Made by a program: the position numbers and the translations under genes. The notes beneath the pieces were generated by a model. The model was not told the DNA's origin. It did not search any database and saw nothing but the letters and a program-made list of their open reading frames with translations. Shown in pieces: positions 29,378 through 55,350 of a stretch of DNA of 64,000 nt. Every line of letters begins with the position of its first letter. Position 1 is the stretch's first letter. The stretch comes from Ancylobacter mangrovi (GTDB taxonomy: Bacteria > Pseudomonadota > Alphaproteobacteria > Rhizobiales > Xanthobacteraceae): NCBI RefSeq assembly GCF_024752355.1, contig NZ_JANTHZ010000002.1, forward strand, positions 62,001-126,000. The letters are read 5' to 3'.

Positions 29378-29384
29378 TGTCGGG

Positions 29385-29409: not shown

Positions 29410-29426
29410 GCCCCAGGGAGACACCC

Positions 29427-29930
29427 ATGAAACTTCTCAACGCCGTGGATCGCCTGGTCCAGGTGGTCGCCTTCGCCATGTTCGCCGGCATGTTCGTGCT
29501 GACGCTGGCGCAGGTGCTGTTCCGCTATTTCCTGCAGATCCCGGTTCCCTGGACCGAGGAAGCCGCGCGCGCCCTGTTCGCCCTGTCGGTGCTGAGCGGC
29601 ATCACGCTCGCCTACCGCCAGCGCGAGCACGTCATGGTCGACTTCCTGTTCGCGCAGTTCAGCCCGGCGGTGAAGCGCGGCTTCTCGATCGCCTTCGCCC
29701 TGTCGATCCTGTTCTTCCTCGCGCTGTGGGCGAGCGGCGCGGTCCACATGGCCGAGCGCAACTGGTCGATCACGCTGATCACGATCGGCTGGTTCCGCAT
29801 CAGCTATTACTACCTGTGGGAGCTGGCGATGATCACGCTGCTGGCCGTCTACGTGCTCATCGACCTCAAGAACCTCGTCACGGGCCAGACCGTCAGCCTC
29901 CAGGACGGCGAGCAGGAGATCGACCTGTGA
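29427..29930 (+). CDS. dctQ: TRAP transporter small permease (DctQ family)
   Basis: A 167-residue membrane protein with four hydrophobic segments, normal for DctQ. The conserved P-W-T-E-E motif appears as VPWTEEAARALFALSV after the first helix, and the conserved H/V-V-D-F motif as EHVMVDFLFAQ. It pairs with the large permease downstream, whose GTG start overlaps its stop by 4 bp (GTGA). It follows dctP by 49 bp, with a hairpin in between. Confidence 0.92.
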   Translation: MKLLNAVDRLVQVVAFAMFAGMFVLTLAQVLFRYFLQIPVPWTEEAARALFALSVLSGITLAYRQREHVMVDFLFAQFSPAVKRGFSIAFALSILFFLALWASGAVHMAERNWSITLITIGWFRISYYYLWELAMITLLAVYVLIDLKNLVTGQTVSLQDGEQEIDL

Positions 29931-31222: not shown

Positions 31223-32142
31223 CCGCCCTGTCCCTCCCTCCCGGGACATGGGACACCCATGTCCACGTCTTCGAGCCCGACCGCTTCCCCTATGCGGCGG
31301 TGCGCAGCTACACGCCGGGCACCGCCTCGCTGGAGACGTTGCAGCAGCGCCACCGGCAATGGGGCGTCGCCCATGCCGTGCTGGTCCAGCCGAGCGTCTA
31401 CGGCGCCGACAATGCCTGCCTCATCGACGCGCTGCGGCGGCTCGGGCCGTCGGCCCGGGGCGTGGCGGTCGCCGATGTCGCGACGCTCGACGACAACCGG
31501 CTGGCCGAGTTCGCCGGCGCCGGGATCCGCGGCTTCCGCGTCAACCTGATGGCGGGAAGCGCGCTCGATGCGGACGAGGCGTTCTTCGGCATGGCCGGGC
31601 GCCTGCGTGGGACCGGCCTGTTCCTGCAGCTCTACGCGCCGCTCGCGACCATCCTCGCACGCGCCTCGACCCTCGAGAAGGCCGGCATCCCGGTGGTGCT
31701 GGACCATTTCGCCGGGGCCGGCGCGGAGGACGACGCGCAGAGCATGGAGCAGCTCGCCGCGCTCGCCGGTTCCGCGCCGATCTGGATCAAGCTTTCCGCC
31801 GACTACCGCATCGGCCAGTCCTCGGAGGCACCGGAGACACGCGCGCTCGACCTGATCCGCCGGTTCGAGGCGATGGTACCTGACCGGCTGATCTGGGGCT
31901 CGGACTGGCCCCACACCGGCGGCGGCGCGGCGCGCAAGGCGCGGGGGCCCGACGAGGTCGAGCCCTTCCGCAAGGTCTACGCGCTCTCGGTGCCCCAGCT
32001 CATGGCCGATGCCGGGCTCGACGCGGAGGCCCGCCACCGGATCCTCGTCGACAACCCCACCACGCTCTTCGGGGCGGCTCCCCATTCTCCCTCTCTCGCG
32101 CAGCATGCGGCTTCTGTCTCCGGGACAGGCCAAAGGAACTGA
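31219..32142 (+). CDS. Amidohydrolase-2 family metal-dependent hydrolase (PDC lactonase-like)
   Basis: A 307-residue TIM-barrel protein of the amidohydrolase 2 family, the group of 2-pyrone-4,6-dicarboxylate lactonase and sugar-acid lactonases. The metal motif DTHVHVF is at residues 12-18 (H14, H16), a barrel histidine in VVLDHFAGAG, and the catalytic aspartate in RLIWGSDWPHTG. It is translationally coupled to the TRAP permease and followed 4 bp later by a beta-decarboxylating dehydrogenase. Lactone opening of an imported sugar-acid or pyrone-like compound is a reasonable role but only inferred. Confidence 0.85.
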   Translation: MTALSLPPGTWDTHVHVFEPDRFPYAAVRSYTPGTASLETLQQRHRQWGVAHAVLVQPSVYGADNACLIDALRRLGPSARGVAVADVATLDDNRLAEFAGAGIRGFRVNLMAGSALDADEAFFGMAGRLRGTGLFLQLYAPLATILARASTLEKAGIPVVLDHFAGAGAEDDAQSMEQLAALAGSAPIWIKLSADYRIGQSSEAPETRALDLIRRFEAMVPDRLIWGSDWPHTGGGAARKARGPDEVEPFRKVYALSVPQLMADAGLDAEARHRILVDNPTTLFGAAPHSPSLAQHAASVSGTGQRN

Positions 32143-32146
32143 TGGC

Positions 32147-33226
32147 ATGAAGATCGCCCTTCTTCCCGGCGACGGGATCGGCCCCGAAATCACCGCCGCC
32201 ACCCGTCTGGTCATGGAGGCCGCGGACCGGCAGCACCGGATCGGCTTCGACTTCGAGGAAATCGACATCGGCTTCGCGGCGCTGAAGGCGCACGGCTCGA
32301 CCCTGCCCGACAGCGCCTTCGAGGCGGCGCGGGCGGCGGACGGGCTGATCCTCGGGCCGGTCTCCCATCTCGACTATCCCCCGCGCGACAGGGGCGGGCT
32401 GAACCCCTCCGGCGAGCTGCGCAAGCGGCTCGACCTGTTCGCCAACATCCGCCCCGCCGTCACCCGGCCCGAGCTGCCCTCGGCGACGGGCGCCAGCTTC
32501 GACATGGTGATCTATCGCGAGAACACGGAAGGCTTCTACGCCGACCGCTGCATGTATGCCGGCCCGGGCGAGCTCCAGGTCACGGCCGACGTGACCCTGT
32601 CGATGCGGCGCATCACGCGGCAGGCCTCGCTGCGGATCGCCGAGGCGGCGTTCGAGGGCGCCCGCGCGCGCCGCAAGCACGTCACCGCCGTGCACAAGCA
32701 GAACGTCCTCAAGATCACCGACGGCCTGTTCCTCGGCTGCTGCCGCGAAGTCGCCGCGCGCTATCCCGACATCGCCTATGACGAGCTGATCATCGATGCG
32801 GCCTGCGCCCATCTCGTGCGCCGGCCCGAAGCCTTCGACGTGATCGTCACCACCAACATGTTCGGCGACATCCTGTCCGACCTCGCCTCCGAATTGTCGG
32901 GCAGCCTCGGCCTCGCGGCGTCGGTCAATGCCGGCGAGACCATTGCGATGGCGCAGGCGCAGCACGGCTCGGCCCCGGACATCGCCGGGCAGGGCATCGC
33001 CAACCCGTCCTCACTGATCGGCTCGGCCGGGATGCTGCTCGAATGGCTCGGCCTGCACCGCCAGCGCCCCGAGCTCTCGGCGGCGGGCCGCTCGATCCTG
33101 ACCGCGCTGGACATGGCGCTGAAAGATCCCTCGACCCGGACCCGCGACCTCGGCGGGCAGCTCGGAACGCAGGCCTTCGCGCAGGCGGTAGCCGACCGGG
33201 TCGGCTCCACCGTCCCCAGCCACTGA
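32147..33226 (+). CDS. Isocitrate/isopropylmalate dehydrogenase family enzyme (fourth paralogue)
   Basis: A 359-residue beta-decarboxylating dehydrogenase. The ATG at 32147 gives MKIALLPGDGIGPEITA; the frame upstream overlaps the amidohydrolase. Motifs are RENTEGFYADRCM, the catalytic lysine region AVHKQNVLKITDGLF, the metal motif [18 protein letters not shown] and [16 protein letters not shown]. It is more like the enzyme at 14185 than like TtuC (19277), with SLIGSAGMLLEWLG matching [12 protein letters not shown]. In this operon it likely oxidises and decarboxylates a hydroxy-diacid made by the upstream hydrolase, with the product aldehyde or acid handled by the next gene, an aldehyde dehydrogenase. 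Confidence 0.88.
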   Translation: MKIALLPGDGIGPEITAATRLVMEAADRQHRIGFDFEEIDIGFAALKAHGSTLPDSAFEAARAADGLILGPVSHLDYPPRDRGGLNPSGELRKRLDLFANIRPAVTRPELPSATGASFDMVIYRENTEGFYADRCMYAGPGELQVTADVTLSMRRITRQASLRIAEAAFEGARARRKHVTAVHKQNVLKITDGLFLGCCREVAARYPDIAYDELIIDAACAHLVRRPEAFDVIVTTNMFGDILSDLASELSGSLGLAASVNAGETIAMAQAQHGSAPDIAGQGIANPSSLIGSAGMLLEWLGLHRQRPELSAAGRSILTALDMALKDPSTRTRDLGGQLGTQAFAQAVADRVGSTVPSH

Positions 33227-33260: not shown

Positions 33261-34631
33261 ATGATCAAGTCGATCAATCCGGCGACCGGCGACGTTATTG
33301 ACAGCTTCGAGGCGCACAGCGCGGGCGAGGTCGATGCGATCCTCGCGGCGGCCGATCGTGCGCAGCGCTCCTGGCGCCGGGTGCCGATCGAGAAGCGGGT
33401 CCTGCTGCTGACCGCGATGGCCAAGGTGCTGCGCGCGAACAAGGAGGACTACGCCCGCCTCATCACCGAGGAGATCGGCAAGCCAATCACCGAGTCGCGC
33501 GGCGAGATCGAGAAGTGCGCCGTCACCTGCGATTTCTACGCCTCCCACGCGCAGGGCTTCCTCGCCGACGAGACGATCGAGTCCAACGCGAGGGAATCGG
33601 GCGTGGTGTTCGACCCGCTCGGCGTGGTGCTCGCCATCATGCCGTGGAACTACCCGTTCTGGCAGTTCGTGCGCTTCGCCGCCCCGGCCCTCGCCGCCGG
33701 CAACGGGGCGATCCTGAAGCACGCCAACAACGTGCCGCGCAGCGCGCTCGCGATCGAGGCGATGATGCGCGAGGCGGGCTGCCCCGACGGGCTGATGCGC
33801 ACGCTGCTGGTCGAGGCCTCGGAGGTCGCGGGCATCATCGCCGACGACCGGATCGCGGCGGTGACGCTGACCGGCTCCACCGAGGTCGGCGCCATCGTCG
33901 CCTCGCAGGCGGGCAAGGCGCTGAAGAAGCAGGTGCTCGAGCTGGGCGGGTCCGACCCGTTCATCGTGCTGCCCGACGCCGACATCGCGACGGCGGCCGC
34001 CACCGCGGTGAAGGCGCGCTTCGTCAATGTCGGCCAGTCCTGCGTCAACGCCAAGCGCTTCATCGTCCATGAGGACGTCGCGGACGCGTTCAACGAGGCC
34101 TTCATCGCCGGCATCCGTGCGCTCAAGATCGGCGATCCGATGGACGAGGCCACCCAGATCGGCCCGATGGCGCGCGCCAATCTGCGCGACGGCCTCCACG
34201 ACCAGGTGACGCGCTCCATCGCCGACGGGGCGGTGCTGGTGCTCGGCGGCGAGCCGATCGAGGGGCCCGGCTGCTACTACGCGCCGACGCTGCTCGACCG
34301 GGTGACGCCCGACCACACCTCCTTCAAGGAGGAGCTCTTCGGCCCGGTCGCCTCGGTCATCCGCTTCAGCTCGACCGAGGAGGCGATCGCGCTCGCCAAC
34401 GACACCGAGTTCGGCCTTGGCGCCGCGGTGTGGACCGCCGACCTCGACCTTGCCCGCCGCATGGCGCGCGAGATCGACGCCGGCGCGGTGTTCATCAACG
34501 GCATGGTGGCCTCGGACGCGCGCCTGCCCTTCGGCGGCATCAAGAGGTCGGGCTACGGGCGCGAGCTCGGCAGCTACGGCATCCGCGAGTTCACCAACAT
34601 CAAGACCGTCTGGATCGGCCCGGCCAGGTGA
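33261..34631 (+). CDS. Aldehyde dehydrogenase, succinate-semialdehyde dehydrogenase-like (short, Sad type)
   Basis: A 456-residue aldehyde dehydrogenase, shorter than the typical 490 and starting directly with INPATGDVI, like the succinate-semialdehyde dehydrogenase Sad/YneI. The general base is E227 (LELGGSDP) and the nucleophile is C261 (VNVGQSCVNAKR); MPWNYPFWQ and TGSTEVG are also present. It oxidises a semialdehyde to the acid with NAD(P). It lies 34 bp after the fourth beta-decarboxylating dehydrogenase, whose decarboxylated product could be the semialdehyde. A cupin gene follows 39 bp later. Confidence 0.9.
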   Translation: MIKSINPATGDVIDSFEAHSAGEVDAILAAADRAQRSWRRVPIEKRVLLLTAMAKVLRANKEDYARLITEEIGKPITESRGEIEKCAVTCDFYASHAQGFLADETIESNARESGVVFDPLGVVLAIMPWNYPFWQFVRFAAPALAAGNGAILKHANNVPRSALAIEAMMREAGCPDGLMRTLLVEASEVAGIIADDRIAAVTLTGSTEVGAIVASQAGKALKKQVLELGGSDPFIVLPDADIATAAATAVKARFVNVGQSCVNAKRFIVHEDVADAFNEAFIAGIRALKIGDPMDEATQIGPMARANLRDGLHDQVTRSIADGAVLVLGGEPIEGPGCYYAPTLLDRVTPDHTSFKEELFGPVASVIRFSSTEEAIALANDTEFGLGAAVWTADLDLARRMAREIDAGAVFINGMVASDARLPFGGIKRSGYGRELGSYGIREFTNIKTVWIGPAR

Positions 34632-35146: not shown

Positions 35147-35169
35147 GCCGGGCGGCGTTCCCGCCCGGC
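35147..35169 (-). terminator. Hairpin at the end of the second TRAP operon
   Basis: A perfect 9-bp stem GCCGGGCGG/CCGCCCGGC with a 5-base loop touches the stop codon of the minus-strand dctM at 35169. Together with the hairpin at 35101 it separates two convergent operons. Confidence 0.6.
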
Positions 35170-36473
35170 TAGAACAGCCGTCCCGGCAGCCACAGCACCA
35201 GGCCGGGAAAGACCGCCAGCAGGGCACCGACCAGGCAGGTGATGACGAAGAAGGGAAAGGCAGCGGCGGAGAGCCGCGACAGCCCGATGCCCGTCATCCC
35301 CTGCAGCACGAACAGGTTGAAGCCGATGGGCGGGGTGAGCTGGCCGAGCTCGGCCATCACCACCAGGAACACCCCGAACCAGATCGGATCGTAGCCGGCC
35401 GCGACCACCAGCGGCAGCACGATCGGCACGCTCATCACCATCATCGACACGCCGTCCAGCGCGCAGCCGAGCGCGACATAGACGAGGCCGAGCACCAGGA
35501 TCAGCGCGAACGGGTGCAGGTGCAGGCTCGAAATGGCGGTCGAGACGTCCTGCGGCACGTGCATGTAGCCCATGGCCGCCGACATGAAGCTTGCAGCTGC
35601 CATCAGCGAGAGCAGCATGGACGAGGTCTTGACCGTGTTCATCAGCGCGGTCGCGAAGATGCACAGCGTGAGCTGCCGGCTTGCGAGCGTCATCACCACG
35701 GTGGCGAGGAGGCCCATCACCGCCGATTCCGACGGCGTGGCGACGCCCGTATAGATGCTGCCGAGCACCACGACGATCAGCAGCACGATGGGGCCGAGGT
35801 CGCGTAGCGCGGCGAAGCGGTCCCTCCAGTCCGCGCGCTGCGCTCCCGGCGCGAGCGACGGGTTCAGAAGGCAGCGCAGCATGATGTAGCCGCTGTAGGA
35901 GAGCGCGAGGATCGCTCCGGGAATGACGCCGGCGGCGAACATCTTGGCGATCGAGACCTCGGCCAGCACGCCGTAGATGATCATGTTGATCGACGGCGGG
36001 ATCATCAGGCCGAAGGTGCCCGCCCCGGCGAGCGAGCCGAGCGCGAGGTTCTGGTCGTAGCCGCGCTGGCGCAGCTCGCCGACCGTGATCTTGGCGATCG
36101 TCGCCGTGGTCGCGACGCTCGAGCCGCAGATGGCCGCGAACAGGGTGCAGCCGCCGATATTGGCGTGGATCAGCCGGCCGGGAATGCGGTCGACCCAGGG
36201 CGACAGGCCCCGGAACAGCCGGCTGGCCATGTCGGTATGGAAGATGATGTCCCCCATCAGGATGAACAGGGGAATGGCCGAGAGCTCCCAGGCCGACGCG
36301 CTGCGCCACATGACCTGGGACATGATGGCGCCGACGCGGCCGAGATCCATGCCCACGGTCACGATGAGTCCGACCACGCTGAGCAGCAGGAAGCTCGCGA
36401 ACAGCCACAGGCCCGCCCCGAGCAGGAAGAACAGCAGCAGGAAGACCGTCAGCGCGCTGGCATAGATGTCCAT
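35169..36473 (-). CDS. dctM: TRAP transporter large permease (DctM family)
   Basis: A 434-residue permease with about twelve membrane segments. The ATG at 36473 gives MDIYASALTVFLLLFFLLGAG, a normal DctM start; the frame upstream to 36701 overlaps the small permease gene. Family features are SAIPLFILMGDIIFHTD, NIGGCTLFAAICGSSVATTA, GTFGLMIPPSINMIIYG and LGQLTPPIGFNLFVLQGMTG. It is the distal gene of a dctP-dctQ-dctM operon. The LGQLTPPIGFNLFVLQ form is typical of the branch that transports carboxylates other than classic C4-dicarboxylates; the substrate is unknown. Confidence 0.92.
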   Translation of the reverse strand: MDIYASALTVFLLLFFLLGAGLWLFASFLLLSVVGLIVTVGMDLGRVGAIMSQVMWRSASAWELSAIPLFILMGDIIFHTDMASRLFRGLSPWVDRIPGRLIHANIGGCTLFAAICGSSVATTATIAKITVGELRQRGYDQNLALGSLAGAGTFGLMIPPSINMIIYGVLAEVSIAKMFAAGVIPGAILALSYSGYIMLRCLLNPSLAPGAQRADWRDRFAALRDLGPIVLLIVVVLGSIYTGVATPSESAVMGLLATVVMTLASRQLTLCIFATALMNTVKTSSMLLSLMAAASFMSAAMGYMHVPQDVSTAISSLHLHPFALILVLGLVYVALGCALDGVSMMVMSVPIVLPLVVAAGYDPIWFGVFLVVMAELGQLTPPIGFNLFVLQGMTGIGLSRLSAAAFPFFVITCLVGALLAVFPGLVLWLPGRLF

Positions 36474-36510
36474 GGGATTCTCTTGGATTGACGGCGGCTG
36501 GCCAACGGCC

Positions 36511-37050
36511 TCACCCCACCGCCGTCTCGTCCTGCTCCTCGGCGAGGACGGGCTCGCGCCCGCTCGCCACGCCGAGGCCGTAGGCGAACACCTGGAACCA
36601 GAAGATCGCCAGACCGGCCAGCATGGTGCCGGTCGGGATCCATTGCGGGATGCCCGACATGGTGCCGCTGGTGTAGCCGCGGCTGTACTGGCGGGAGACA
36701 TTGCCCCAGAAGTGCCAGATCAGCAGGCCGAGCACCGCGAGCGTGGCCGCCACGCAGACGAGCTCGACGAGCACCCGCAGGCGGGGTGTCCGGTCGAGCC
36801 TCCCCAGCAGCAGGTTGACGCGCAGGATGCCGCCTTCGGCGAAGGTGTAGCCGAGCGGCAGGAAGCCGGTCGCCGCCACGAGGTAGCCTACCAGTTCGTC
36901 GCTCATGAAGGTCGAGGTCGCGAAGAAGGTGCGCAGCACGATCTCCAGCAGGATGACTGCGGCGATCAGCACGATGCCGATCGCCGCCGCCACGCCGCCG
37001 GCGATCGAGAGAGCGCGGGCGAGCCGGCGCAGGACGTCGATCAGCCACAT
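36511..37050 (-). CDS. dctQ: TRAP transporter small permease (DctQ family)
   Basis: A 179-residue protein with four hydrophobic segments. After an N-terminal helix (VAAAIGIVLIAAVILLEIVL) comes a conserved FMSDELVGYLVAATGFLPLGYTFAEGG region corresponding to the W-T-E-E region of other DctQ proteins, and then two further helices. The ATG at 37050 (MWLIDVLRRLARAL) is preferred; the longer frame upstream overlaps the binding-protein gene in another phase. It lies between dctP (26 bp) and dctM (37 bp). Confidence 0.88.
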   Translation of the reverse strand: MWLIDVLRRLARALSIAGGVAAAIGIVLIAAVILLEIVLRTFFATSTFMSDELVGYLVAATGFLPLGYTFAEGGILRVNLLLGRLDRTPRLRVLVELVCVAATLAVLGLLIWHFWGNVSRQYSRGYTSGTMSGIPQWIPTGTMLAGLAIFWFQVFAYGLGVASGREPVLAEEQDETAVG

Positions 37051-37076
37051 CGGGTCGGGTTCCGTGCGCGGCGCGG

Positions 37077-38078
37077 TCAGTTCGCCTTCATGGCCGCGGT
37101 GGCGAAGTCGAACACCATGTCCGCCTGCGGCCCGAAGCGCTTCTTCCAGGCGTCGATGGCCGGGGCCGCCGATTCCTTGAGGTACGCCTTGAACTCCGGC
37201 GTGATCTCGCCGACCGTCACGCCCAGCTCCTTCATCTTCTGGAGGTTGTCGGCGACGGTCTTGCGCGACAGCGCCCAGCCGTATTTCTCCGCCTCGCCGG
37301 CCGCTACCAGCAGCACGGTCTGCATCTCCGGCGGCAGGTCGTCGAACGCCTTCTGGTTCACGTGAACCATCTCGACGCCGACGGTGAAGCCCACCGGGGT
37401 GAAGGCCGTCAGCCCCGCTTCCGGGAACTTGGCCGAGAGCCCGCCATCGTCGGAAGTCAGCACGCCGTTGATGGCGCCGGTCGAGATCGCGGGAAGCGTG
37501 TCGGCCCAGGAGAGCTGGATGGCGTCGGCCCCGGCCTTCTTCATCGTCTGCACCGCGGCGAGGTCGACCACGCGCACCCGGAAGCCTTCGAGATCGGCCT
37601 TGGAAACGATCGGCTTCTTGGCCCAGAAGCCCTGCGGCGTCCACGGCATGGTGAACAGCAGGAACTGTCCGTTGGCCTGCATGGCGTGGTTGTAGAGCGG
37701 CCGCAGCGCGCTATCGAGATTCTCCGCCTCGTCGAGCGTGGTCTGCAGGAAGGGCAGCGACTGAAGCTCGAAGATCGGATAGATGCCGTTCATACGGTTG
37801 AAGGGCGTGCTGGCGATCATCAGCGCGCCGTCCTCCACCGCCGTGTAGTGGTCCGCGGCCTTGAAGCCCAGCGCGCCGCCATAATGGATGGTGATGTCGA
37901 ACTCCCCCTTGGAGAGCTCCTTCACCTTGTCGGCGAAATAGGCGTTGACCCGGCCCGGCAGCGAAGCGGGGGCGTACTCCGTCGACAGGTCCCATTTGAC
38001 TGGAGCGGCCCACGCCGCCGAAGCGAACATCGACGCCGAGACCGCCATTCCCAGGACGGCACCACGAATTGCACGCAT
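37077..38078 (-). CDS. dctP: TRAP transporter substrate-binding protein (DctP family)
   Basis: A 333-residue secreted binding protein. Residues 1-24 are a Sec signal ending at AWAA-PVKWD. The mature protein begins WDLSTEYAPASLPGRVNAYFAD, with the carboxylate-binding arginine in FRVRVVDLAAVQTM and a family-like QLSWADTLPAISTGAINGVLT. It heads the second TRAP operon and is preceded, 80 bp upstream, by an AT-rich operator-like region shared in sequence with two other promoters nearby. The XRE-cupin regulator gene at 38185-38835 is immediately upstream in the same direction. Confidence 0.92.
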   Translation of the reverse strand: MRAIRGAVLGMAVSASMFASAAWAAPVKWDLSTEYAPASLPGRVNAYFADKVKELSKGEFDITIHYGGALGFKAADHYTAVEDGALMIASTPFNRMNGIYPIFELQSLPFLQTTLDEAENLDSALRPLYNHAMQANGQFLLFTMPWTPQGFWAKKPIVSKADLEGFRVRVVDLAAVQTMKKAGADAIQLSWADTLPAISTGAINGVLTSDDGGLSAKFPEAGLTAFTPVGFTVGVEMVHVNQKAFDDLPPEMQTVLLVAAGEAEKYGWALSRKTVADNLQKMKELGVTVGEITPEFKAYLKESAAPAIDAWKKRFGPQADMVFDFATAAMKAN

Positions 38079-38985: not shown

Positions 38986-40575
38986 TTGCGCGACTTCCAC
39001 CGCCCCGGTCGAAGCGAGGTCATGGCGACGTCCGCCATGGCGGCCACCTCCATGCCCGCGGCGAGCCTGGTCGCGATCGAGACCCTGAAGGCGGGAGGCA
39101 ACGCCGCCGACGCGGCGGTGGCTGCGGCCGCCGTGCTCGCAGTGATCGAGCCGCAGTCGACCGGCATCGGCGGGGACTGCTTCTGCCTCTACGCGCCGGC
39201 GGGCGGCGAGGTGGTCGCCCTGAACGGGGCGGGCCGCGCGCCCGGTGCCGCGACGATCGACTATTTCGAGGCGCACGGCATCGACCGCCTCGACGAGGAA
39301 TCCGCCCATGCCGTGACCGTGCCCGGCGCGGTCTCCGCCTGGGAAAAGCTGCTCGAGGCTCAAGGCACCATGGGCTTCGACGAGGTGCTCGCCCCGGCAA
39401 TCCGCATGGCCGAGGACGGCTTTCCCGTCCACGCCCGGGTGGCCAGCGACTGGGCCGAGATGGCGGAGAAGCTGGCGCGCAATGGAGCACACGCCCTGCT
39501 TCCCGGCGGCACCTCTCCCGCCACTGGCGATATCGTGCGCCATCCGGCGCTGGCGGCGACCCTGCGGGCGATCGCGAAGGGAGGCGCAGCCGCCTTCTAC
39601 GAGGGGGCTATCGCCGACGACATGGCCGCGACGCTGCGCGCCCGGGGCGGCCTGCACACGGCAGAGGACTTCCATGACGGCCGGCACGCGGCGGCGTTCG
39701 TCGCGCCGATCTCGCTCGGCTGGAACGGCTACCGGGCCTGGGAATGCCCGCCGCCCGGCGTCGGCCTCACCGCCCTGACCATGCTCGGAATCCTGGAGCG
39801 CCGGGGCGTGGCGAAAGGCGGCCCGCTGGACCCGCTTCGTCTCCATCGCGTCGCCGAGGCGGCCAAGCTCGCCTTCCGGAACCGCGACGCCCTGATAGGC
39901 GACGATCCCGCGCAGCCCGTCCCGGTCGCAGAGCTTACAAGCGACGCGCATCTCGATGCGCTGGCGGCGATGATGGACGACGCCTCGGTGTTGCCGCTCC
40001 CGCCTTTCGAGGCGGAACTGCCGCTGCACCGCGACACCGCCTACCTCGCCGTCACCGACCGCGACGGCAACTGGTGCAGCTTCATCAACTCGCTGTTCGA
40101 CGATTTCGGCGGGGGCCTCTATGCGGAACGCTCGGGTGTCGTGTTCCACAATCGCGGCGCGGGTTTCCGGGTCGAGCGCGGGCATCCGAACTGCATCGGC
40201 CCGCGCAAGCGGCCCATGCACACCATCATTCCCGGGCTGCTCACCGAAGGCGGCGTGCCGATGATGGCGTTCGGCGTGACGGGCGGGCATTTCCAGCCCA
40301 CCGGCCAGAGCCTGCTGCTAGGCAATGTGTTCGACTACGGGCTCGACCTTCAGGCCGCGCTCGATCTGCCCCGCGTCTTCGCCCATGAGGGCCTGCTCAA
40401 GCTCGAGCAGGGCATTCCCGACGAGGCCGCGCGGGCGCTCGCCGCCAAGGGGCATCGGCTGTCCTACCCGGCGCGCCCGCATGGCGGCGGCCAGGCGATC
40501 CGGCTCGACCGGGCGCGCGGCGTGCTGATCGGCGCCTCGGATCCGCGCCGCGACGGCGCGGCCATAGGATATTAG
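38986..40575 (+). CDS. Gamma-glutamyltransferase family protein
   Basis: A 529-residue member of the gamma-glutamyltransferase (GGT) family, proenzymes that cut themselves before a nucleophilic threonine and hydrolyse or transfer gamma-glutamyl groups. The predicted nucleophile is T351 (LHRDTAYLAV), and GFDEVLAPAIRMAEDGFPVHARV, the glycine-rich GGGLYAER and RKRPMHTIIPGLL are conserved. No signal peptide is present, so it is a cytoplasmic GGT-like enzyme. The start is a TTG at 38986, chosen because MRDFHRPGRSEV is the conserved N terminus of this subgroup; the first in-frame ATG (39022) would remove it. It starts an operon with a PLP lyase, hydantoinase subunits and a flavin oxidase. Confidence 0.87.
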   Translation: MRDFHRPGRSEVMATSAMAATSMPAASLVAIETLKAGGNAADAAVAAAAVLAVIEPQSTGIGGDCFCLYAPAGGEVVALNGAGRAPGAATIDYFEAHGIDRLDEESAHAVTVPGAVSAWEKLLEAQGTMGFDEVLAPAIRMAEDGFPVHARVASDWAEMAEKLARNGAHALLPGGTSPATGDIVRHPALAATLRAIAKGGAAAFYEGAIADDMAATLRARGGLHTAEDFHDGRHAAAFVAPISLGWNGYRAWECPPPGVGLTALTMLGILERRGVAKGGPLDPLRLHRVAEAAKLAFRNRDALIGDDPAQPVPVAELTSDAHLDALAAMMDDASVLPLPPFEAELPLHRDTAYLAVTDRDGNWCSFINSLFDDFGGGLYAERSGVVFHNRGAGFRVERGHPNCIGPRKRPMHTIIPGLLTEGGVPMMAFGVTGGHFQPTGQSLLLGNVFDYGLDLQAALDLPRVFAHEGLLKLEQGIPDEAARALAAKGHRLSYPARPHGGGQAIRLDRARGVLIGASDPRRDGAAIGY

Positions 40576-40578
40576 AAA

Positions 40579-40600
40579 CAAAATTTCTTTTAAGAAATTT
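40579..40600. promoter_or_regulatory. Near-perfect palindrome AAATTTCTTTTAAGAAATTT
   Basis: Two 9-bp arms (40581-40589 and 40592-40600) pair perfectly around TT, in an AT-rich gap of 78 bp between the GGT gene and the PLP lyase gene. The left half equals the core of the TRAP operon operator at 38135. No GC-rich stem is present, so it is an operator rather than a terminator. Confidence 0.6.
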
Positions 40601-40653
40601 ATTCCCATCAGGAAATCTCGGTGCTAAGCAATGGAGCCCATCAAGGATGCTCC

Positions 40654-41787
40654 ATGCCACCCGCGCCCACCGAATTGTCGTTCTTCCCCAATCCCCGGCG
40701 CGCGAGCGGCTATCCCGAGCACCTCGAACGGTTCGTGAGCTGGGCGCTGGCCGAGGAAGCCCACGCCGAGATCAGCGCATGGCTGGGCTATGCGCCCACC
40801 CCTCTGGTGGCGCTGGACGGCATGGCCCGTCACCTCGGCCTGCGCTCGATCTTCTGCAAATATGAAGGCGGCCGGTTCGGCATCGGCAGCTTCAAGGCGC
40901 TTGGCGGCGCCTATGCGGTCCGGCTAGCGGCCCGCGAGGCGGCGTCGATGCCCGTCTTCGCGACCGCGTCGGACGGCAATCACGGCCTCTCGGTCGCCTG
41001 GGGCGCGCGCGAAGTCGGAGCCCGCTGCGTCGTCTTCCTGCACCGGCATGTGAGCGAGGGCCGCGAACGGCTGATCCGCGACATGGGCGCGGAGGTGGTA
41101 CGGGTCGACGGCACCTATGACGATTCGGTGCACATGGCGCTCGCCGAGGCAGCCGCGAAGGGCTGGCGGCTGGTGCCCGACACGGCGTCTTCCTACGACC
41201 CGCAGCCGGTCCGGGTCATGGCCGGCTACGGCACCATGGTGCGCGAGATGTACGACGCCTTCGCGCCGGGCGAGGAACCGACCCACTACTTCGTCCAGGG
41301 CGGCTGCGGCGGCCTCGCCGCGGCGGTGTGCGGCCTGCTGCGCCAGCACCCGCCCGGCGGCGCGCCCTTCCGCTTCGTCGTGGTCGAGCCGGACAAGGCC
41401 GACTGCCTCTACGCCTCGGCCCGCGCTGGCCACCCGGTCGCCATCGGCGGTGATCTCGACACGGTGATGAGCGGCCTGTCGGTCGGAGAGGTGTCCGCCC
41501 TCGCCTGGCCGGTGCTCGATCGTGGCACCGATGCCTTCATGACCGTCGACGACGCGGATGCGGTTGCGATGATGCGCCAGCTCGCGGCCGGCGCTCATGG
41601 CGACGCGCCGATCGAGGTCGGCGACAGCGGCGTCGCCGGGCTTGCCGGCCTCGCGGCCGCCTGCGCCGACGAGGGAGTGCGGCAGGCGATCGGGCTCGAG
41701 CCGTCGAGCCGCGTCGCCGTCATTGCCACGGAGGGTCCGGTCGACCGGGCGAGCTACGACCGCCTGGTCGGGAGAGCGGCGGCATGA
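40654..41787 (+). CDS. Diaminopropionate ammonia-lyase-like PLP enzyme
   Basis: A 377-residue fold-type II PLP enzyme. The PLP lysine is K81 in FGIGSFKALGGAYAV, and TASDGNHGLSVAWGAR, VDGTYDDSVHMALAEA and FVQGGCGGLAAAVCG (phosphate-binding glycines) are typical of diaminopropionate ammonia-lyase and the threonine-synthase/dehydratase relatives. It probably beta-eliminates ammonia from a 2-amino acid such as 2,3-diaminopropionate or a related alkyl-amino acid. The ATG at 40654 has an AAGGA site. Its stop overlaps the hydantoinase A start (ATGA). In this operon the substrate could instead be an aminoacyl product released by the GGT-like enzyme. Confidence 0.85.
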   Translation: MPPAPTELSFFPNPRRASGYPEHLERFVSWALAEEAHAEISAWLGYAPTPLVALDGMARHLGLRSIFCKYEGGRFGIGSFKALGGAYAVRLAAREAASMPVFATASDGNHGLSVAWGAREVGARCVVFLHRHVSEGRERLIRDMGAEVVRVDGTYDDSVHMALAEAAAKGWRLVPDTASSYDPQPVRVMAGYGTMVREMYDAFAPGEEPTHYFVQGGCGGLAAAVCGLLRQHPPGGAPFRFVVVEPDKADCLYASARAGHPVAIGGDLDTVMSGLSVGEVSALAWPVLDRGTDAFMTVDDADAVAMMRQLAAGAHGDAPIEVGDSGVAGLAGLAAACADEGVRQAIGLEPSSRVAVIATEGPVDRASYDRLVGRAAA

Positions 41788-43838
41788 GCGCGGCCCTGTC
41801 CTGGTCCGTCGGCGTGGATGTCGGCGGCACCTTCACCGACCTCGTCGCCCGCGAGGAAACCAGCGGACGCTTCGTGCGCCACAAGCGCCCCTCGACGCCG
41901 CACGATCCGGCGGAGGCGATCCTTTCCGGCCTGTCCGAGTTGTGCGCACTCGCCGACATCAATCCGCGCACCATCGCGTCGCTGTCCCACGGCACCACGG
42001 TCGCCACCAACGCGCTGATCGAGAAGCGGGGCGGCACGGTCGCCCTGATCGTTACCGAGGGCTTCCGCGACCTGCTCGAGATCGGCCGCCAGACGCGCCC
42101 GAAGATCTACGATTTCCAGACCGACCACCCCGAGCCGCTGGTGCCGCGCCATCTGCGCTTCGAGGCGCGCGAGCGGATCACCGTCGGCGGGCGGATCATC
42201 ACGCCGCTCGATGACGGGGAAATCGCGCGGCTGGTCGCGGCCGTGCAGGCCGCGCGAGCGGATTCCTGCGCCATCTGCCTGCTGTTCTCCTTCGCCGAGC
42301 CGGACCACGAGCGCCGCATCGCCGACGCGTTGCGCGCCGTGATGCCGGATCTGCACCTGTCGCTGTCGAGCGAGGTTCAGCCTGAGTTCCGCGAGTATGA
42401 GCGACTCTCCACCACGGTGCTCAACGCCTATCTCCAGCCCGTGATGACCTCCTACCTCGCCCGTCTCGAACGCGAGGCGGAGCGCCTCTCGCCCGGCGTC
42501 CGGCTCGGCATCAACCAGTCGAGCGGCGGCCTCATCTCCGGCGGGCGGGCGCGCATGTTTCCCATCCGCACCGCGCTGTCGGGTCCGGCGGCCGGGGTGG
42601 CGGGGACGATCGACATCGCCTCGCACCTCGCCCGGCGCGACCTCATCACGCTCGACATCGGCGGCACCAGCTCCGACATCGCGCTGATCCGCGGTGCCCG
42701 TGCGGCGATGATCCACGAGCGGTGGATCGAGGGCTATCCCGCCCGCCTCGCCAGCGTCGACATCAACGCCGTCGGCGCGGGCGGCGGGTCCATCGCCTGG
42801 ATCGATGCCGACGGCCTGCTCAAGGTCGGGCCACGCAGCGCAGGGGCCTATCCCGGCCCGGCCTGCTACGGCCGCGGCGGCGACCAGCCCACGGTGAGCG
42901 ACGCCAACATGGTGCTCGGCCGCCTGTCCGACCGGGGTCTTCTGGGCGGAGCGATGCCGCTCGACCGCGCAGCGGCGGAACGTGTCGTCGGGCGGCTGGC
43001 CGACGAGCTCGGCCTGCCGATCGAGCGCACCGCGCTCGGCATCATCGACGTGGCGGTCGCCAACATGGCCCGCGGCATACGATCGGTATCGATCGAGCGC
43101 GGCCACAACCCGGCGGAGTTCAGCCTGTTCGCCTTTGGCGGCGCCGGGCCGCTGCATGCGAGCGCGGTCGCCCGCCAGCTCGGCATTTCGCACATCGTCG
43201 TTCCGCCGGAGCCGGGCCTGCTCTGCGCCCAGGGGCTGATCGTCGCCGACCGGCGGGAGGACTTCGTGCGCACCGCTCCGGTCGCGCTGGCCAGGGGCGA
43301 CCTCGCCCGCCTCGGCCAGGCGGCGGCCGAGCTGCGCGAACTCGCCCGCGACTGGTTCGCCGCGGAGCAGGTGGCGCCGGAGGACCAGGCGACCGAGATG
43401 CGCCTCGACATGCGCTATGTCGGGCAGAACTTCGAACTCGGCGTCGCCGTCGCCGACGACCCGGCCACGATCGGCCGGGACGAACTGGCCGAGCGATTCC
43501 ACGAAGCCCATGCCCTCGCCTACGGCTTCATGAACCCGCAGGCGCCGGTGGAGGTGGTCAGCGTGCGGCTGGCGGCGGTCGGGCGACGCCCGCGCAGCCG
43601 GGTCGCACGCGCCCGCGAGCAGGGGCGGGACCACGAGCCGGCGCGTCTCCGCCCGGTCTGGTACGCGGCCGACGCGCCCGCCGAGGCGCTCCTCCACGAC
43701 CGCGCCCATCTCGTGCCCGGCGACGTCGTCGCCGGCCCGGCGATCATCGAGCAGCTCGATACGACGACGGTGCTGTTTCCTGGCGACCAGGCGCTGGTCG
43801 ACGACGGCTTCAACCTCCTGATCACGGTGCAGGCATGA
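41784..43838 (+). CDS. hyuA: Hydantoinase/oxoprolinase subunit A (HyuA family)
   Basis: A 684-residue HyuA-type subunit with the ASKHA-fold ATPase domain. The phosphate-binding start VGVDVGGTFTDLVAREE, the second motif ITLDIGGTSSDIALIRGA and a C-terminal beta-barrel-like region (MRYVGQNFELGV, AFHEAHALAYGFMNPQAPVE) are as in N-methylhydantoinase and 5-oxoprolinase. ATP hydrolysis drives ring opening of a cyclic amide such as N-methylhydantoin, hydantoin or 5-oxoproline. It overlaps the PLP-lyase stop by 4 bp and its own stop overlaps the B subunit start. Which ring is the substrate cannot be decided here. Confidence 0.9.
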   Translation: MSAALSWSVGVDVGGTFTDLVAREETSGRFVRHKRPSTPHDPAEAILSGLSELCALADINPRTIASLSHGTTVATNALIEKRGGTVALIVTEGFRDLLEIGRQTRPKIYDFQTDHPEPLVPRHLRFEARERITVGGRIITPLDDGEIARLVAAVQAARADSCAICLLFSFAEPDHERRIADALRAVMPDLHLSLSSEVQPEFREYERLSTTVLNAYLQPVMTSYLARLEREAERLSPGVRLGINQSSGGLISGGRARMFPIRTALSGPAAGVAGTIDIASHLARRDLITLDIGGTSSDIALIRGARAAMIHERWIEGYPARLASVDINAVGAGGGSIAWIDADGLLKVGPRSAGAYPGPACYGRGGDQPTVSDANMVLGRLSDRGLLGGAMPLDRAAAERVVGRLADELGLPIERTALGIIDVAVANMARGIRSVSIERGHNPAEFSLFAFGGAGPLHASAVARQLGISHIVVPPEPGLLCAQGLIVADRREDFVRTAPVALARGDLARLGQAAAELRELARDWFAAEQVAPEDQATEMRLDMRYVGQNFELGVAVADDPATIGRDELAERFHEAHALAYGFMNPQAPVEVVSVRLAAVGRRPRSRVARAREQGRDHEPARLRPVWYAADAPAEALLHDRAHLVPGDVVAGPAIIEQLDTTTVLFPGDQALVDDGFNLLITVQA

Positions 43839-45556
43839 CAGCGCCCGGCCCCATGCTCGACCCGATCACGCTCGAGCTCGTCCTCAACGCGCTGAGGTCG
43901 GTCACCGACGAGACCTATATCGCACTGATGCGCAGCGCCTATTCGACCAACATCAAGGAGCGCAACGACCATTCCACCGCGCTCATCGATCCGCGCGGGC
44001 GGATGATCGCGCTGTGCGAGCGCTCGCAGCCCATCCATCTGAGCTCCATGCTCGGGCTGACCAACGCGCTGCTCGCCAAGTACCGGATCGAGGACATCGC
44101 GCCCGGCGACATCTTCGCCGCCAACGACCCCTACGCCGCCGGCGGCTCGCACCTGCCGGACGTGAACCTCTCGATGCCGGTCTTCGCCGACGGGAGGCTC
44201 ATCTGCTTCGTCTGCAACATCGCCCATCACGCGGATATCGGCGGCATGTCGCCGGGCAGCATGTCTGGGGGGACCGAGATCTACCAGGAGGGTCTGCGAA
44301 TCCCTCCCGTCCGCCTGTTCTCGCGGGGCGAGCTCAATACCGACATGCTCGACCTGTTCCTGCTCAATGCGCGCGTGCCCGACGAGCGGCGCGGCGACTA
44401 TGTCGCCCAGATCGCCGCCTGCCGGCTCGGCGAGCGGCGCATGCTCGACCTCGTCGCGACCTATGGCGCGCCGCAGCTCACCCTCGCCTTCGACGCGCTG
44501 ATCGAGCGGACCTATGAGCGCAGCAAGCGCGCCATCGCCCGCATCCCGGCCGGCCGCTACACGTTCGAGGACGTGATGGACGACGATGGCTGGGGGGCGG
44601 TCGACATTCCGATCCGCCTCGCCATCACCGTCGGCGATCCCGCGACCGAGGGGCGCATACGCTGCGACTTCACCGGCAGCGCGCCGGCCGTGCGCGGCAA
44701 CATCAACGTTCCGTTCCGCGCCACCCAGTCCTCGGTGGTCTATGCGCTGCGGGCGATGCTCGACCCCGACGTGCCGAGCAACCAGGGCATGCTCGACGCG
44801 ATCGAGATCGTCGCGCCGGAAGGCTCGCTGCTGAACGCGGCCTTTCCGGCGGCTGTCGCCGGCCGGGCCAATACCTGCCAGCGCATCATCGACGTCGTCA
44901 TCGGCGCCCTCGCCCCGGCACTCCCCACGGAGGCGGTCGGCGCCGCGAACGGCGCCAACACCGCCGTCATCTTCTCGGGCACCGACCCCCGCACGGGCGG
45001 CGGCTATGTCTATCTCGAGACCGTGGGCGGCGGCTTCGGCGGGCGCGCCCTCAAGGACGGCACGGACGGGGTGCAGGTGCACCTGATCAACACCTCGAAC
45101 CTGCCGGTCGAGGCGATCGAGAGCGAGTACCCGCTGCTCGTGGAGAGCTACGGCTTCGTCGCCGATTCCGGCGGCGCCGGGAGGCGGCGCGGAGGGCTCG
45201 GGCTACGCCGCGTCATCCGCCCGGTCGACCACGTCACGACCTTCACCGGACAGGGCGAGCGTTTCATCAACCCACCCTGGGGCGTGTTCGGCGGCGAGCC
45301 CGGTGGTACCGGCGGCTTTCGCATGCGCGAGGCGGACGGTGCCGAACGCGCGCTGCCCACCAAGCCGGGCGCCACCGAGGTCCGCCCCGACCAGGCACTG
45401 GTCGTCGAGACCGCCGGCGCGGGCGGCTACGGGCCGCCGGCCGAACGCACGGGAAACGACCTCGCGCGCGACCTCGTCTCCGGCAAGTTCACCCCAGACT
45501 TCCTTCGGTCCCACTACCCGCAGGCCGACCGACCGCCTGACAACGACAAGGTCTGA
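43835..45556 (+). CDS. hyuB: Hydantoinase/oxoprolinase subunit B (HyuB family)
   Basis: A 573-residue partner of HyuA that contributes the ring-opening active site. Typical family elements are LDPITLELVLNALRSVTDE at the N terminus, NIAHHADIGGMSPGSMSGG (two histidines and an aspartate near the metal), IYQEGLRIPP and GGAGRRRGGLGLRRVIRPV. The ATG at 43835 overlaps the HyuA stop (ATGA), which is the normal arrangement of the two subunits. The longer frame to 42722 lies inside hyuA and is not used. With HyuA it forms the ATP-dependent cyclic-amide hydrolase. Confidence 0.92.
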   Translation: MTAPGPMLDPITLELVLNALRSVTDETYIALMRSAYSTNIKERNDHSTALIDPRGRMIALCERSQPIHLSSMLGLTNALLAKYRIEDIAPGDIFAANDPYAAGGSHLPDVNLSMPVFADGRLICFVCNIAHHADIGGMSPGSMSGGTEIYQEGLRIPPVRLFSRGELNTDMLDLFLLNARVPDERRGDYVAQIAACRLGERRMLDLVATYGAPQLTLAFDALIERTYERSKRAIARIPAGRYTFEDVMDDDGWGAVDIPIRLAITVGDPATEGRIRCDFTGSAPAVRGNINVPFRATQSSVVYALRAMLDPDVPSNQGMLDAIEIVAPEGSLLNAAFPAAVAGRANTCQRIIDVVIGALAPALPTEAVGAANGANTAVIFSGTDPRTGGGYVYLETVGGGFGGRALKDGTDGVQVHLINTSNLPVEAIESEYPLLVESYGFVADSGGAGRRRGGLGLRRVIRPVDHVTTFTGQGERFINPPWGVFGGEPGGTGGFRMREADGAERALPTKPGATEVRPDQALVVETAGAGGYGPPAERTGNDLARDLVSGKFTPDFLRSHYPQADRPPDNDKV

Positions 45557-45560
45557 GACC

Positions 45561-46712
45561 ATGCAAGCGACTCATTCGAACGCCGACGCTGCGGTGCCGG
45601 CGAAGAGCGGCGTGCGCCGCGTGATCGTCGTCGGCGCCGGCATCGCCGGGCTTTCGATCGCCTGGTCGCTGGCGCGGCGCGGCATCGAGGTCGACCTGTT
45701 CGAGCAGGGCTCGATCCCCAATCCGAAGAGCTCATCCTTCGACGAGCACCGCATCAACCGCCACGCCTATGGCCGCCTGCAGGGCTATGCGCGGCTAATG
45801 CCGGAATCCTTCCGCCTGTGGGACGCGATGTGGAGCGATCTCGGCGTGCGCCACTATGAGAGCACGGGCGGCATCTATGTCCTGCGCACGGATGACGACT
45901 GGTACGAGACGACGGCCGCCTCGCTCGACGAGGTCGGCGTCGACTATCACGACATCCCGCTCGACCAGCTCGAGCGTCTCGTCCCGATGATCGAGTCCGA
46001 GGGCGTGCTGCGCGCGGTCCATGTGGGCGGATCGGGCTTGCTCTACCCGAACCGGATCCTCACTGACCTCGTCGTCCACCTCGCGGCGCGCGGCGTCCGG
46101 TTCCACGCCATGTCTGCGGTCACCGAGGTCGACCCGGAGCGGGGAGAGGTGACGGCGGGCGGCAAGGTCCACGCGGCCGACATGGTCGTGGTCGCCGCGG
46201 GGGCCTGGATCGACCGGCTGGTGCCGAGCTTCAGGGGACAGGCCGTTCCCTCCCGTCAGGCGGTGCTTTTCCTCGCGCCTCCGCCGGACCTCGCGGCGCT
46301 GTGGGCCTCGGCGCCGGTCATCGTGGTCAAGGACGACGAGGCGGGCCTCTACACGCTGCCGCCGCGCAACGGCACGCGGCTGAAGATCGGCGACCATCGC
46401 TTCTCGCGCATCGGCGACGCCGACGAGGACCGGCTCGCCACCGAGGCCGACGTCGAAAGCCTGTGGCACGGCCTCCGGAAATGCTACCGCGACATCGATC
46501 GCTACGGCGTGCTGGAGCAGAAGGCCTGCTACTACACCGTCACCGAGGACGAGAATTTCCTGGTACGCGCGATCGGGCCGCAGGGCTGGGCGGTGAGCGC
46601 CTGCTCGGGGCACGGCTTCAAGCTGGCGCCGCTGGTCGCCGATTCCGTGGCCAGGGCGATCGCCGGCGAGGCGGGCGCCGCCGAGATCGAGCGCAAGCTG
46701 GAAGGCCGCTAG
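45561..46712 (+). CDS. FAD-dependent oxidoreductase, monomeric sarcosine oxidase-like
   Basis: A 383-residue flavoenzyme of the DAO/sarcosine-oxidase family that oxidises an N-methyl or secondary amino acid. The dinucleotide fold VIVVGAGIAGLSIAWSLARRG is at the N terminus, the family SSSFDEHRINRHAYG loop follows, and the residue that holds FAD covalently in monomeric sarcosine oxidase is kept as C323 (QKACYYTVTEDENFLV). The C-terminal SACSGHGFKLAPLVAD is also typical. The ATG at 45561 follows hyuB by 4 bp. As last gene of the operon it may oxidise the N-alkyl amino acid freed by the hydantoinase, giving glyoxylate-type or keto-acid products. Confidence 0.87.
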   Translation: MQATHSNADAAVPAKSGVRRVIVVGAGIAGLSIAWSLARRGIEVDLFEQGSIPNPKSSSFDEHRINRHAYGRLQGYARLMPESFRLWDAMWSDLGVRHYESTGGIYVLRTDDDWYETTAASLDEVGVDYHDIPLDQLERLVPMIESEGVLRAVHVGGSGLLYPNRILTDLVVHLAARGVRFHAMSAVTEVDPERGEVTAGGKVHAADMVVVAAGAWIDRLVPSFRGQAVPSRQAVLFLAPPPDLAALWASAPVIVVKDDEAGLYTLPPRNGTRLKIGDHRFSRIGDADEDRLATEADVESLWHGLRKCYRDIDRYGVLEQKACYYTVTEDENFLVRAIGPQGWAVSACSGHGFKLAPLVADSVARAIAGEAGAAEIERKLEGR

Positions 46713-54854: not shown

Positions 54855-55345
54855 CAGACGTCCATTTCCTGCTCGTGCGAGACGTAGGTCTCCGGAGCGC
54901 CGAGAGTGAGGAGGATGACGACGGCAAAGGAGGCGAGCGAGGCCGCTTGAAGGGCATAGACCACCGCGATCGAGACGCTCGGTATGGCGATCAGCGTCAT
55001 GTGGCGGGTCGCCTCGGCCTGCAGCCCCGCGCCGAGGGCGAGATAGGCGATCACCACGGCGCAGATGAGCTTCATCAGGATCACGTAGGGAACGAAGATC
55101 ACCTTCGGCAGCAGCCCGACGAAGAAGTCGACGACGATGTGCTCGCCCCGCAGATAGGCCGGCGGCAGGCCCGCATAGACCGCGCAGACCAGCGCCAGCC
55201 GCGAGACCTCCTCGGTCCAGGCCAGCGGGAAGGCAAGCACGTAGCGGAAGGCGACCTGGCAGAGCACCGTCACGATGGTGACGACGATGAGGCCCACCGA
55301 CACGGCCAACCAGGCCGTGCCGATGCCGTTTGCGAGGCGGCGCAT
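54854..55345 (-). CDS. dctQ: TRAP transporter small permease (DctQ family)
   Basis: A 163-residue membrane protein with four segments, opening LANGIGTAWLAVSVGLIVVTI. The conserved tryptophan-threonine-glutamate motif is present as FPLAWTEEVSRLALVCAVY, followed by EHIVVDFFVGLLP. It lies 5 bp after dctP and its stop overlaps the dctM start. The ATG at 55345 is the only good start. Confidence 0.9.
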   Translation of the reverse strand: MRRLANGIGTAWLAVSVGLIVVTIVTVLCQVAFRYVLAFPLAWTEEVSRLALVCAVYAGLPPAYLRGEHIVVDFFVGLLPKVIFVPYVILMKLICAVVIAYLALGAGLQAEATRHMTLIAIPSVSIAVVYALQAASLASFAVVILLTLGAPETYVSHEQEMDV

Positions 55346-55350
55346 GATGA

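What the first reader, a model, noticed from the sequence alone, without database searches (positions are those of the whole stretch)
38986..46712. Operon linking a gamma-glutamyltransferase-like enzyme, a diaminopropionate-lyase-like PLP enzyme, HyuA/HyuB and a sarcosine-oxidase-like flavoenzyme
Seen directly: five genes in one direction; lyase, hyuA and hyuB overlap by 4 bp each and the oxidase follows hyuB by 4 bp. Known: HyuAB opens hydantoins or 5-oxoproline with ATP, GGT acts on gamma-glutamyl amides, sarcosine-type oxidases act on N-alkyl amino acids. Inference: together they could degrade an N-alkylated gamma-glutamyl or hydantoin-like compound, for example gamma-glutamyl-alkylamides or N-alkylhydantoins. 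I know no described pathway with exactly this set.
Basis: partly seen in the sequence, partly recalled or inferred. Interest (0 to 1): 0.72.

Follow-up and report, generated by a model that had tools for sequence, protein, structure and literature searches.

The report
Conserved ring-opening catabolic gene cluster
A rare, co-inherited set of bacterial genes looks like a small import-and-degrade kit for a ring-shaped, acid-bearing nitrogen compound whose identity is still unknown.

Summary
The five-gene block is real. It is part of a larger locus: upstream and divergent lie a cupin-XRE regulator and a TRAP transporter, and a 13-bp word that occurs only twice in the 4.9-Mb genome precedes both units. 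The core lya-hyuA-hyuB-dao, with TRAP genes, recurs in 3 of the 16 other order genomes with the closest oxidase homologues. The GGT-like protein keeps its catalytic Thr but lacks most glutamate-binding residues of E. coli GGT (roles recalled), so gamma-glutamyl amides are unlikely. The lyase keeps the diaminopropionate-lyase Lys and both Asp, but DGNHGL and GDSG occur in the four operon lyases and none of 42 other aligned rows. The oxidase keeps the catalytic residues of monomeric sarcosine oxidase. Best reading: TRAP imports a carboxylated, N-substituted lactam or cyclic ureide; HyuAB opens it with ATP; the oxidase removes the N-substituent; the lyase splits a diaminopropionate-like product; the GGT-like hydrolase cuts another amide. 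Substrate and order of steps are inference. It is a new variant of known kinds: HyuAB plus oxidase (N-methylpyrrolidone type), and ring opening plus diaminopropionate lyase (reductive uric-acid type).

The parts
35169..36701 (-). dctM, TRAP large permease (true start probably nearer 36510)
   Evidence: Pfam DctM; homologues of 66-74% in L079-L081
36511..37050 (-). dctQ, TRAP small permease (start approximate)
   Evidence: Pfam DctQ in ORF 36511-37644(-)
37077..38078 (-). dctP, TRAP solute-binding protein
   Evidence: Pfam DctP; nearest solved chains 2pfz and 2pfy; 69-72% homologues in L079 and L080
38120..38132 (-). candidate operator copy 1 (CGAATAGGAAACA), upstream of dctP
   Evidence: one of two exact matches of CGNATAGGAAACA in the genome
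38185..38856 (-). XRE helix-turn-helix plus cupin regulator
   Evidence: Pfam HTH and Cupin_2; 64-67% homologues in L079 and L080
38967..38979 (+). candidate operator copy 2 (CGCATAGGAAACA), just upstream of ggt; its AGGAAA could also be a ribosome-binding site
   Evidence: second exact match in the genome
38986..40575 (+). GGT-like Ntn hydrolase; TTG start fits the N-termini of relatives, ATG 39022 is the alternative
   Evidence: Pfam; residue 351 aligns with residue 1 of GGT small chains; N-termini
40581..40600 (.). AT-rich perfect palindrome in the ggt-lya gap
40621..41787 (+). lya, PLP lyase of the diaminopropionate ammonia-lyase type
41784..43838 (+). hyuA, ATP-binding subunit of an ATP-dependent lactamase or hydantoinase
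   Evidence: ATP-site motifs
43835..45556 (+). hyuB, hydrolytic subunit
   Evidence: operon clade
45561..46712 (+). dao, monomeric-sarcosine-oxidase-type FAD oxidase

Best explanation
A regulated uptake-and-catabolism locus for one small carboxylated, N-substituted lactam or cyclic ureide. The TRAP transporter brings it in. HyuAB spends ATP to open the ring (class of reaction from family membership). Ring opening exposes a secondary amine that the FAD oxidase oxidises, releasing the N-substituent as an aldehyde or oxo acid plus hydrogen peroxide (class of reaction from conserved residues; substrate inferred). The remaining 2,3-diamino-acid-like product is split by the PLP lyase to a 2-oxo acid and ammonia or an amine (inferred). 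The GGT-like enzyme hydrolyses an amide or ureido group other than gamma-glutamyl (inferred). The XRE-cupin protein controls both divergent units through the shared word (inferred). Shown: gene content, conservation, catalytic residues, the shared word. Not shown: substrate, order of steps, transcription.
For: Same four genes in the same order in three other genera, each with TRAP genes. Operon lyases one clade (SH-aLRT 100), operon HyuBs one clade (100), three operon oxidases one clade (97). TRAP dctP and dctM relatives beside hyuAB in 9 of 34 other long hyuAB loci, and an Arg common to 13 of 13 aligned DctPs; Arg-carboxylate binding is general in TRAP receptors (PMC4646407, abstract start in listing). 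HyuB directly followed by another DAO type in 4 loci. Lyase Lys92, Asp118 and Asp187 kept. Oxidase keeps the six MSOX residues compared. DAP-lyase relatives lie beside amide-cleaving hydrolases in several loci, and ring opening, ureido removal and a DAP lyase make up the end of the reductive uric-acid pathway (PMC12507026, abstract and passages). Shared word flanking the regulator.
Against: No substrate is known for any of the five enzymes. The lyase's changed motifs may mean another beta-substituted amino acid, not a diaminopropionate. ggt is not fixed in the operon. The shared word was defined from its two copies, so its genome count shows specificity, not significance; an unguided comparison of the two gaps gave 19 of 300 shuffles at least as good, and L081 has no near copy. 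A DAP-lyase relative stands without such neighbours in L131. The relatives carry different extra oxidases: copper amine oxidase in L080, GMC oxidoreductase in L081.
Confidence: 0.42

Rival explanations
1. Lyase first: the PLP enzyme eliminates a heterocycle from a beta-substituted alanine, HyuAB opens the released ring, and the oxidase works on the opened chain.
For: The lyase differs from the 42 other aligned rows near catalytic residues (DGNHGL, GDSG) and lacks the aromatic-x-G-Y motif of nearly all of them, as a new leaving group might require.
Against: No direct evidence for such a substrate; the lyase passes one curated DAP-lyase cut-off (PRK08206, 386.3 against 276 bits; the other two are not met).
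Confidence: 0.2
2. A pathway of the N-methylpyrrolidone kind: HyuAB opens an N-alkyl lactam to an N-alkyl omega-amino acid, the oxidase makes a semialdehyde, and lya and ggt serve side products.
For: HyuAB plus amino-acid oxidase plus succinate-semialdehyde dehydrogenase is the listed nmp gene set (PMC6987047, passages); an aldehyde dehydrogenase nearest to SSDH models lies at 33261-34631.
Against: The aldehyde dehydrogenase was not found in the fetched stretches of L079, L080 or L081. TRAP import suggests a carboxylated substrate. lya is in all four operons, which a side role does not explain.
Confidence: 0.18
3. Salvage of gamma-glutamyl compounds and 5-oxoproline, near the first reader's reading.
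For: The nearest solved DctPs are 2pfz and 2pfy, reported as 5-oxoproline receptors encoded near a 5-oxoprolinase gene (PMC13274462, passage); two relatives, G201 and G246, have no PF03746 gene.
Against: Glutamate-site residues of GGT are lost; the own genome has two PF03746 genes and G261 three; the window DctP groups by motif with hyuAB-linked DctPs, not with the Bordetella pair; no role for lyase or oxidase.
Confidence: 0.1
4. A loose cluster of unrelated catabolic genes.
For: ggt moves between relatives; the window is rich in other catabolic genes.
Against: Four-gene order kept in four genera with hyuA-hyuB overlapping 4 bp each time; clades in lyase, HyuB and oxidase trees.
Confidence: 0.05

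Closest known systems
N-methylpyrrolidone gene set nmpA, nmpB, nmpC, nmpF (Alicycliphilus sp. BQ1)
   Same: ATP-dependent lactamase pair of the HyuAB family next to an amino-acid oxidase (PMC6987047, passages; original paper not held)
   Different: No lyase, GGT-like gene or TRAP is named in the passages seen; the window oxidase is of MSOX type; no nmpC sequence was compared here
Reductive uric-acid pathway (ygfK, ssnA, hyuA, ygeW, ygeY, ygeX)
   Same: Ring opening and amide removal feeding a PLP lyase of the DAP-lyase family (PMC12507026, abstract and passages)
   Different: Its HyuA is an amidohydrolase (PF01979), unrelated to the ATP-dependent HyuA here; no oxidase in the list given; the window lyase has changed motifs
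ATP-dependent lactamase family (CapAB, N-methylhydantoinase, 5-oxoprolinase)
   Same: Both subunits and the ATP motifs present (motifs from PMC8453981, passages)
   Different: Below the caprolactamase cut-offs (531.6 and 267.3 bits against 1000); substrate unknown
Monomeric sarcosine oxidase / N-methyltryptophan oxidase
   Same: Residues equivalent to R52, K265, H269, C315, Y317, K348 (roles recalled)
   Different: Below the NCBIfam cut-offs (173.6 against 257 and 123.1 against 479.65 bits)
Bordetella DctP6/DctP7 5-oxoproline receptors
   Same: Nearest solved structures; conserved Arg
   Different: 10 of 11 non-Bordetella rows, the window included, carry Q[LIM]SWAD, absent from 2pfz and 2pfy

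Membership tests
gamma-glutamyltransferase | N-terminal nucleophile Thr of the small subunit | tested here: met
   residue 351 aligns with residue 1 of solved small chains
gamma-glutamyltransferase | glutamate-binding residues (E. coli R114, N411, Q430, D433, S462, S463; recalled) | tested here: not met
   Ala, Phe, Arg, Gly, His and Thr in their places; below the TIGR00066 cut-off
diaminopropionate ammonia-lyase | PLP Lys and two catalytic Asp (YgeX K77, D120, D189; recalled) | tested here: met
   K92, D118, D187
diaminopropionate ammonia-lyase | curated family score | tested here: inconclusive
   passes PRK08206 (386.3/276), fails TIGR03528 (267.8/532.25) and TIGR01747 (246/274)
diaminopropionate ammonia-lyase | activity on 2,3-diaminopropionate | not testable with these tools
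   needs an enzyme assay
ATP-dependent lactamase (HyuAB) | two ATP phosphate motifs and an adenosine motif in subunit A | tested here: met
   DVGGTFTD at 12, DIGGT at 291, GAYPGP at 354
[quoted passage not shown]
   NDPY, SHLPD and AHHADIGG motifs present; no aligned CapB structure examined
monomeric sarcosine oxidase | covalent-FAD Cys and catalytic Arg, Lys, His, Tyr, Lys | tested here: met
   C323, R67, K275, H279, Y325, K354, kept in the four operon proteins
monomeric sarcosine oxidase | oxidation of sarcosine | not testable with these tools
   needs an enzyme assay
N-methylpyrrolidone pathway | semialdehyde dehydrogenase in the same cluster | tested here: inconclusive
   SSDH-like gene at 33261-34631 beyond the TRAP genes; not found in the fetched L079-L081 stretches
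reductive uric-acid pathway | PF01979 hydantoinase and M20 YgeY-type partners | tested here: not met
   not among the window ORFs scanned with Pfam; not every window ORF was scanned

The most novel reading that the evidence does not exclude
An undescribed aerobic pathway for cyclic (lactam or cyclic-ureide) derivatives of N-substituted 2,3-diaminopropionate, for example 1-alkyl-2-oxoimidazolidine-4-carboxylates or the lactam forms of fungal aminopolycarboxylates of the aspergillomarasmine type (structures recalled). HyuAB opens the ring, an MSOX-type oxidase strips the N-substituent, and a repurposed diaminopropionate lyase finishes the core.
Probability: 0.1. Interest if true: 0.75.

Novelty: new variant of a known kind. 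Interest (0 to 1): 0.5.

Why it matters
HyuAB, DAP-lyase-like and DAO proteins are mostly named from distant relatives. A compact, co-inherited set with its own importer and a candidate operator is a good handle for giving several such families a real substrate. It also contains a lyase clade and a GGT-like enzyme whose residues speak against their automatic names.

Tried and rejected
Gamma-glutamyl or 5-oxoproline salvage: set back to 0.1 (GGT site, PF03746 genes), not dropped, because two relatives lack PF03746.

Beta-N-methylaminoalanine as substrate: considered because a copper amine oxidase follows the oxidase in L080. None of the 20 listed of 124 papers held the words diaminopropionate ammonia-lyase; not pursued.

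N-oxalyl-diaminopropionate: considered because a GGT-like gene and a lyase share a locus in L001, L002 and L026, 3 of the 28 loci. In L026 the lyase is outside the operon clade, two M20 genes follow it and the ggt is about 5 kb away: weak.

Neighbours of other oxidase homologues: 10 ORFs from five of the 13 loci without hyuAB gave a second DAO in three loci, and Cys/Met PLP, Pyr_redox_2, Rieske, ABC, desaturase and peptidase genes. No single substrate emerged. A second scan failed on a frame error and was not repeated.

HyuB neighbour ORFs were chosen partly for their length, so 4 DAO among 10 is not a frequency.

Aspergillomarasmine degradation: one search listed 8 of 108 papers, none about it by title.

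The same gene set in print: 20 listed of 32; 5 of 5; 10 of 13; no listed title or abstract start describes it. Only open-licence PMC papers are searched.

Promoter and terminator scan was near shuffle level; no tRNA in the window. Structure prediction and fold search were not used.

Rows dropped: trees used at most 45 rows within set lengths and without near-duplicate ends. L080's oxidase fell out through an ORF-start error in my script, so that clade has three operon rows. Its HyuB entered under L051.

Not fetched at length: 7 of the 21 other class genomes with HyuB hits and one of the 14 other order genomes (G149).
Full report
Anatomy. The five ORFs are present with the stated overlaps and match the expected Pfam families. 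Upstream and divergent lie a cupin-XRE regulator and a three-part TRAP transporter. The window is 62001-126000 of contig 15 of a 4.91-Mb genome; the organism was not identified.

Conservation. An oxidase homologue at E up to 1e-60 was found in 37 of 397 genomes of the order, the own genome included. I fetched the 16 best other genomes (47-64% identical) and 3 weaker ones. lya-hyuA-hyuB-dao in the same order occurs in 3 of the 16 (L079, L080, L081). In the other 13 and the 3 weaker ones no hyuAB or lya homologue lay in the stretch. L079 and L080 also hold the TRAP genes, a 44-45% GGT-like gene and the regulator, rearranged. L081 has dctQ and dctM, and a GMC oxidoreductase between dctM and lya; no ggt or regulator was found in its fetched stretch. 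hyuA and hyuB overlap by 4 bp in all three.

Rarity. HyuB at E up to 1e-200 was found in 5 of 248 family genomes, the own one and four of other genera, and in 22 of 385 class genomes. The 18 neighbourhoods fetched from these (14 of the 21 other class genomes, 4 of 4 family genomes) held no lya homologue. A lyase search of 378 phylum genomes at E up to 1e-85 found the own one and two others about 50% identical. The set is rare and patchy; spread by gene transfer is an inference.

Clades. In quick maximum-likelihood trees the four operon lyases are one clade (45 rows, SH-aLRT 100), as are the four operon HyuBs (45 rows, 100; G261's row entered as L051). Three operon oxidases are one clade (27 rows, 97); the fourth was lost through my script.

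The lyase. K92, D118 and D187 match the catalytic Lys and two Asp of diaminopropionate ammonia-lyase (roles recalled). It passes one of three DAP-lyase cut-offs. DGNHGL and GDSG occur in the four operon lyases and in none of the 42 other aligned rows; the aromatic-x-G-Y motif after DTS is absent from the four and, outside them, only from L034. I read this as a changed pocket (inference).

The GGT-like enzyme. Residue 351 aligns with the first residue of solved GGT small chains, the nucleophile Thr. Against E. coli GGT it has Ala, Phe, Arg, Gly, His and Thr at R114, N411, Q430, D433, S462 and S463 (roles recalled). T409 is Ser and the Gly-Gly pair is kept. Its nearest solved chain, 2nlz, named cephalosporin acylase by its depositors, shares the NRG and KR-HTIIP motifs. 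Another solved relative, 5hft, is to my recollection an oxamate amidohydrolase, so other amide substrates occur in this fold.

The oxidase. R67, K275, H279, C323, Y325 and K354 match the sarcosine-oxidase set and are kept in the four operon proteins. The DAO that follows HyuB within 4 bp in L167, L169, L175 and L176 lacks the Cys, Lys265 and His269 equivalents but keeps the other three. HyuAB has thus been joined to at least two kinds of DAO, which supports a shared logic: open the ring, then oxidise the exposed amine.

Transport and regulation. Outside this operon, 9 of 34 hyuAB loci fetched with long flanks, some cut by contig ends, have both dctP and dctM relatives. Ten of the 11 non-Bordetella DctPs aligned, the window's included, carry Q[LIM]SWAD; the Bordetella 5-oxoproline receptors do not; one Arg is common to all 13 rows. 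CGNATAGGAAACA occurs exactly twice in the genome, once in each gap beside the regulator; the reversed control pattern occurs 0 times. The word was found from those copies, so the count shows specificity, not significance. An unguided comparison of the two gaps gave 19 of 300 shuffles at least as good, and the AGGAAA of the ggt copy may be a ribosome-binding site. GCGNATAGGAAA with up to 2 mismatches: L079 8 (shuffle mean 3.06), L080 6 (2.54), L081 3 (3.40), window 10 (8.32). With at most 1 mismatch there are 3 sites in L079 (one upstream of ggt, one upstream of lya), 3 in L080 (one upstream of lya), 0 in L081 and 3 in the window (one inside hyuA). The regulator link is therefore suggestive only.

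Known pathways. HyuAB plus amino-acid oxidase is the core of the N-methylpyrrolidone gene set (PMC6987047, passages; original not held). Ring opening, removal of ureido groups and a DAP lyase end the reductive uric-acid pathway (PMC12507026, abstract and passages). Classical DAP-lyase relatives here lie beside Zn-dependent hydrolase and N-carbamoylase (L132), Zn-dependent hydrolase and M20 (L134), two M20 genes (L026), amidohydrolase (L133) or M20 with TRAP (L135), but not in L131. The window joins the two logics with an MSOX-type oxidase; the paper listings show no description of this set.

Verdict. Real, conserved and probably one pathway; substrate unknown.

Noticed in passing
L080 7148-9088 (-) and 16844-18268 (+): A copper amine oxidase gene follows the oxidase on the same strand, and urease subunit and UreF genes lie beyond the regulator.
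   Followed up: partly
L081 15492-17117 (-): A GMC oxidoreductase stands between dctM and lya; an integrase and a family-3 solute-binding protein lie nearby.
   Followed up: no
window 27725-31222, 53556-56364, 7332-10581: Two further TRAP systems (DctP/DctM; DctP/DctQ/DctM) and a TctA/TctC-type transporter: the window is crowded with organic-acid importers.
   Followed up: no
window 14185-15279, 19106-20362, 32009-33226: Three isocitrate/isopropylmalate-dehydrogenase-type genes in one window, the last followed by an SSDH-like aldehyde dehydrogenase and a cupin gene.
   Followed up: no
L120 4799-10680: In Allorhizobium ampelinum plasmid pAtS4c hyuAB follows a SIS-domain gene and a PfkB kinase, a pairing I recall from Amadori-compound breakdown; hyuAB may there open a fructosyl-oxoproline (inference).
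   Followed up: no
L116 and L117: hyuAB-TRAP clusters near heterotetrameric sarcosine oxidase genes, purU, RidA and an aminotransferase on Pseudosulfitobacter and Paracoccus plasmids.
   Followed up: no
L098 5224-11083: A Roseomonas gilardii plasmid has a GGT-family gene, a solute-binding protein gene and a 56% homologue of the window oxidase within 6 kb.
   Followed up: no
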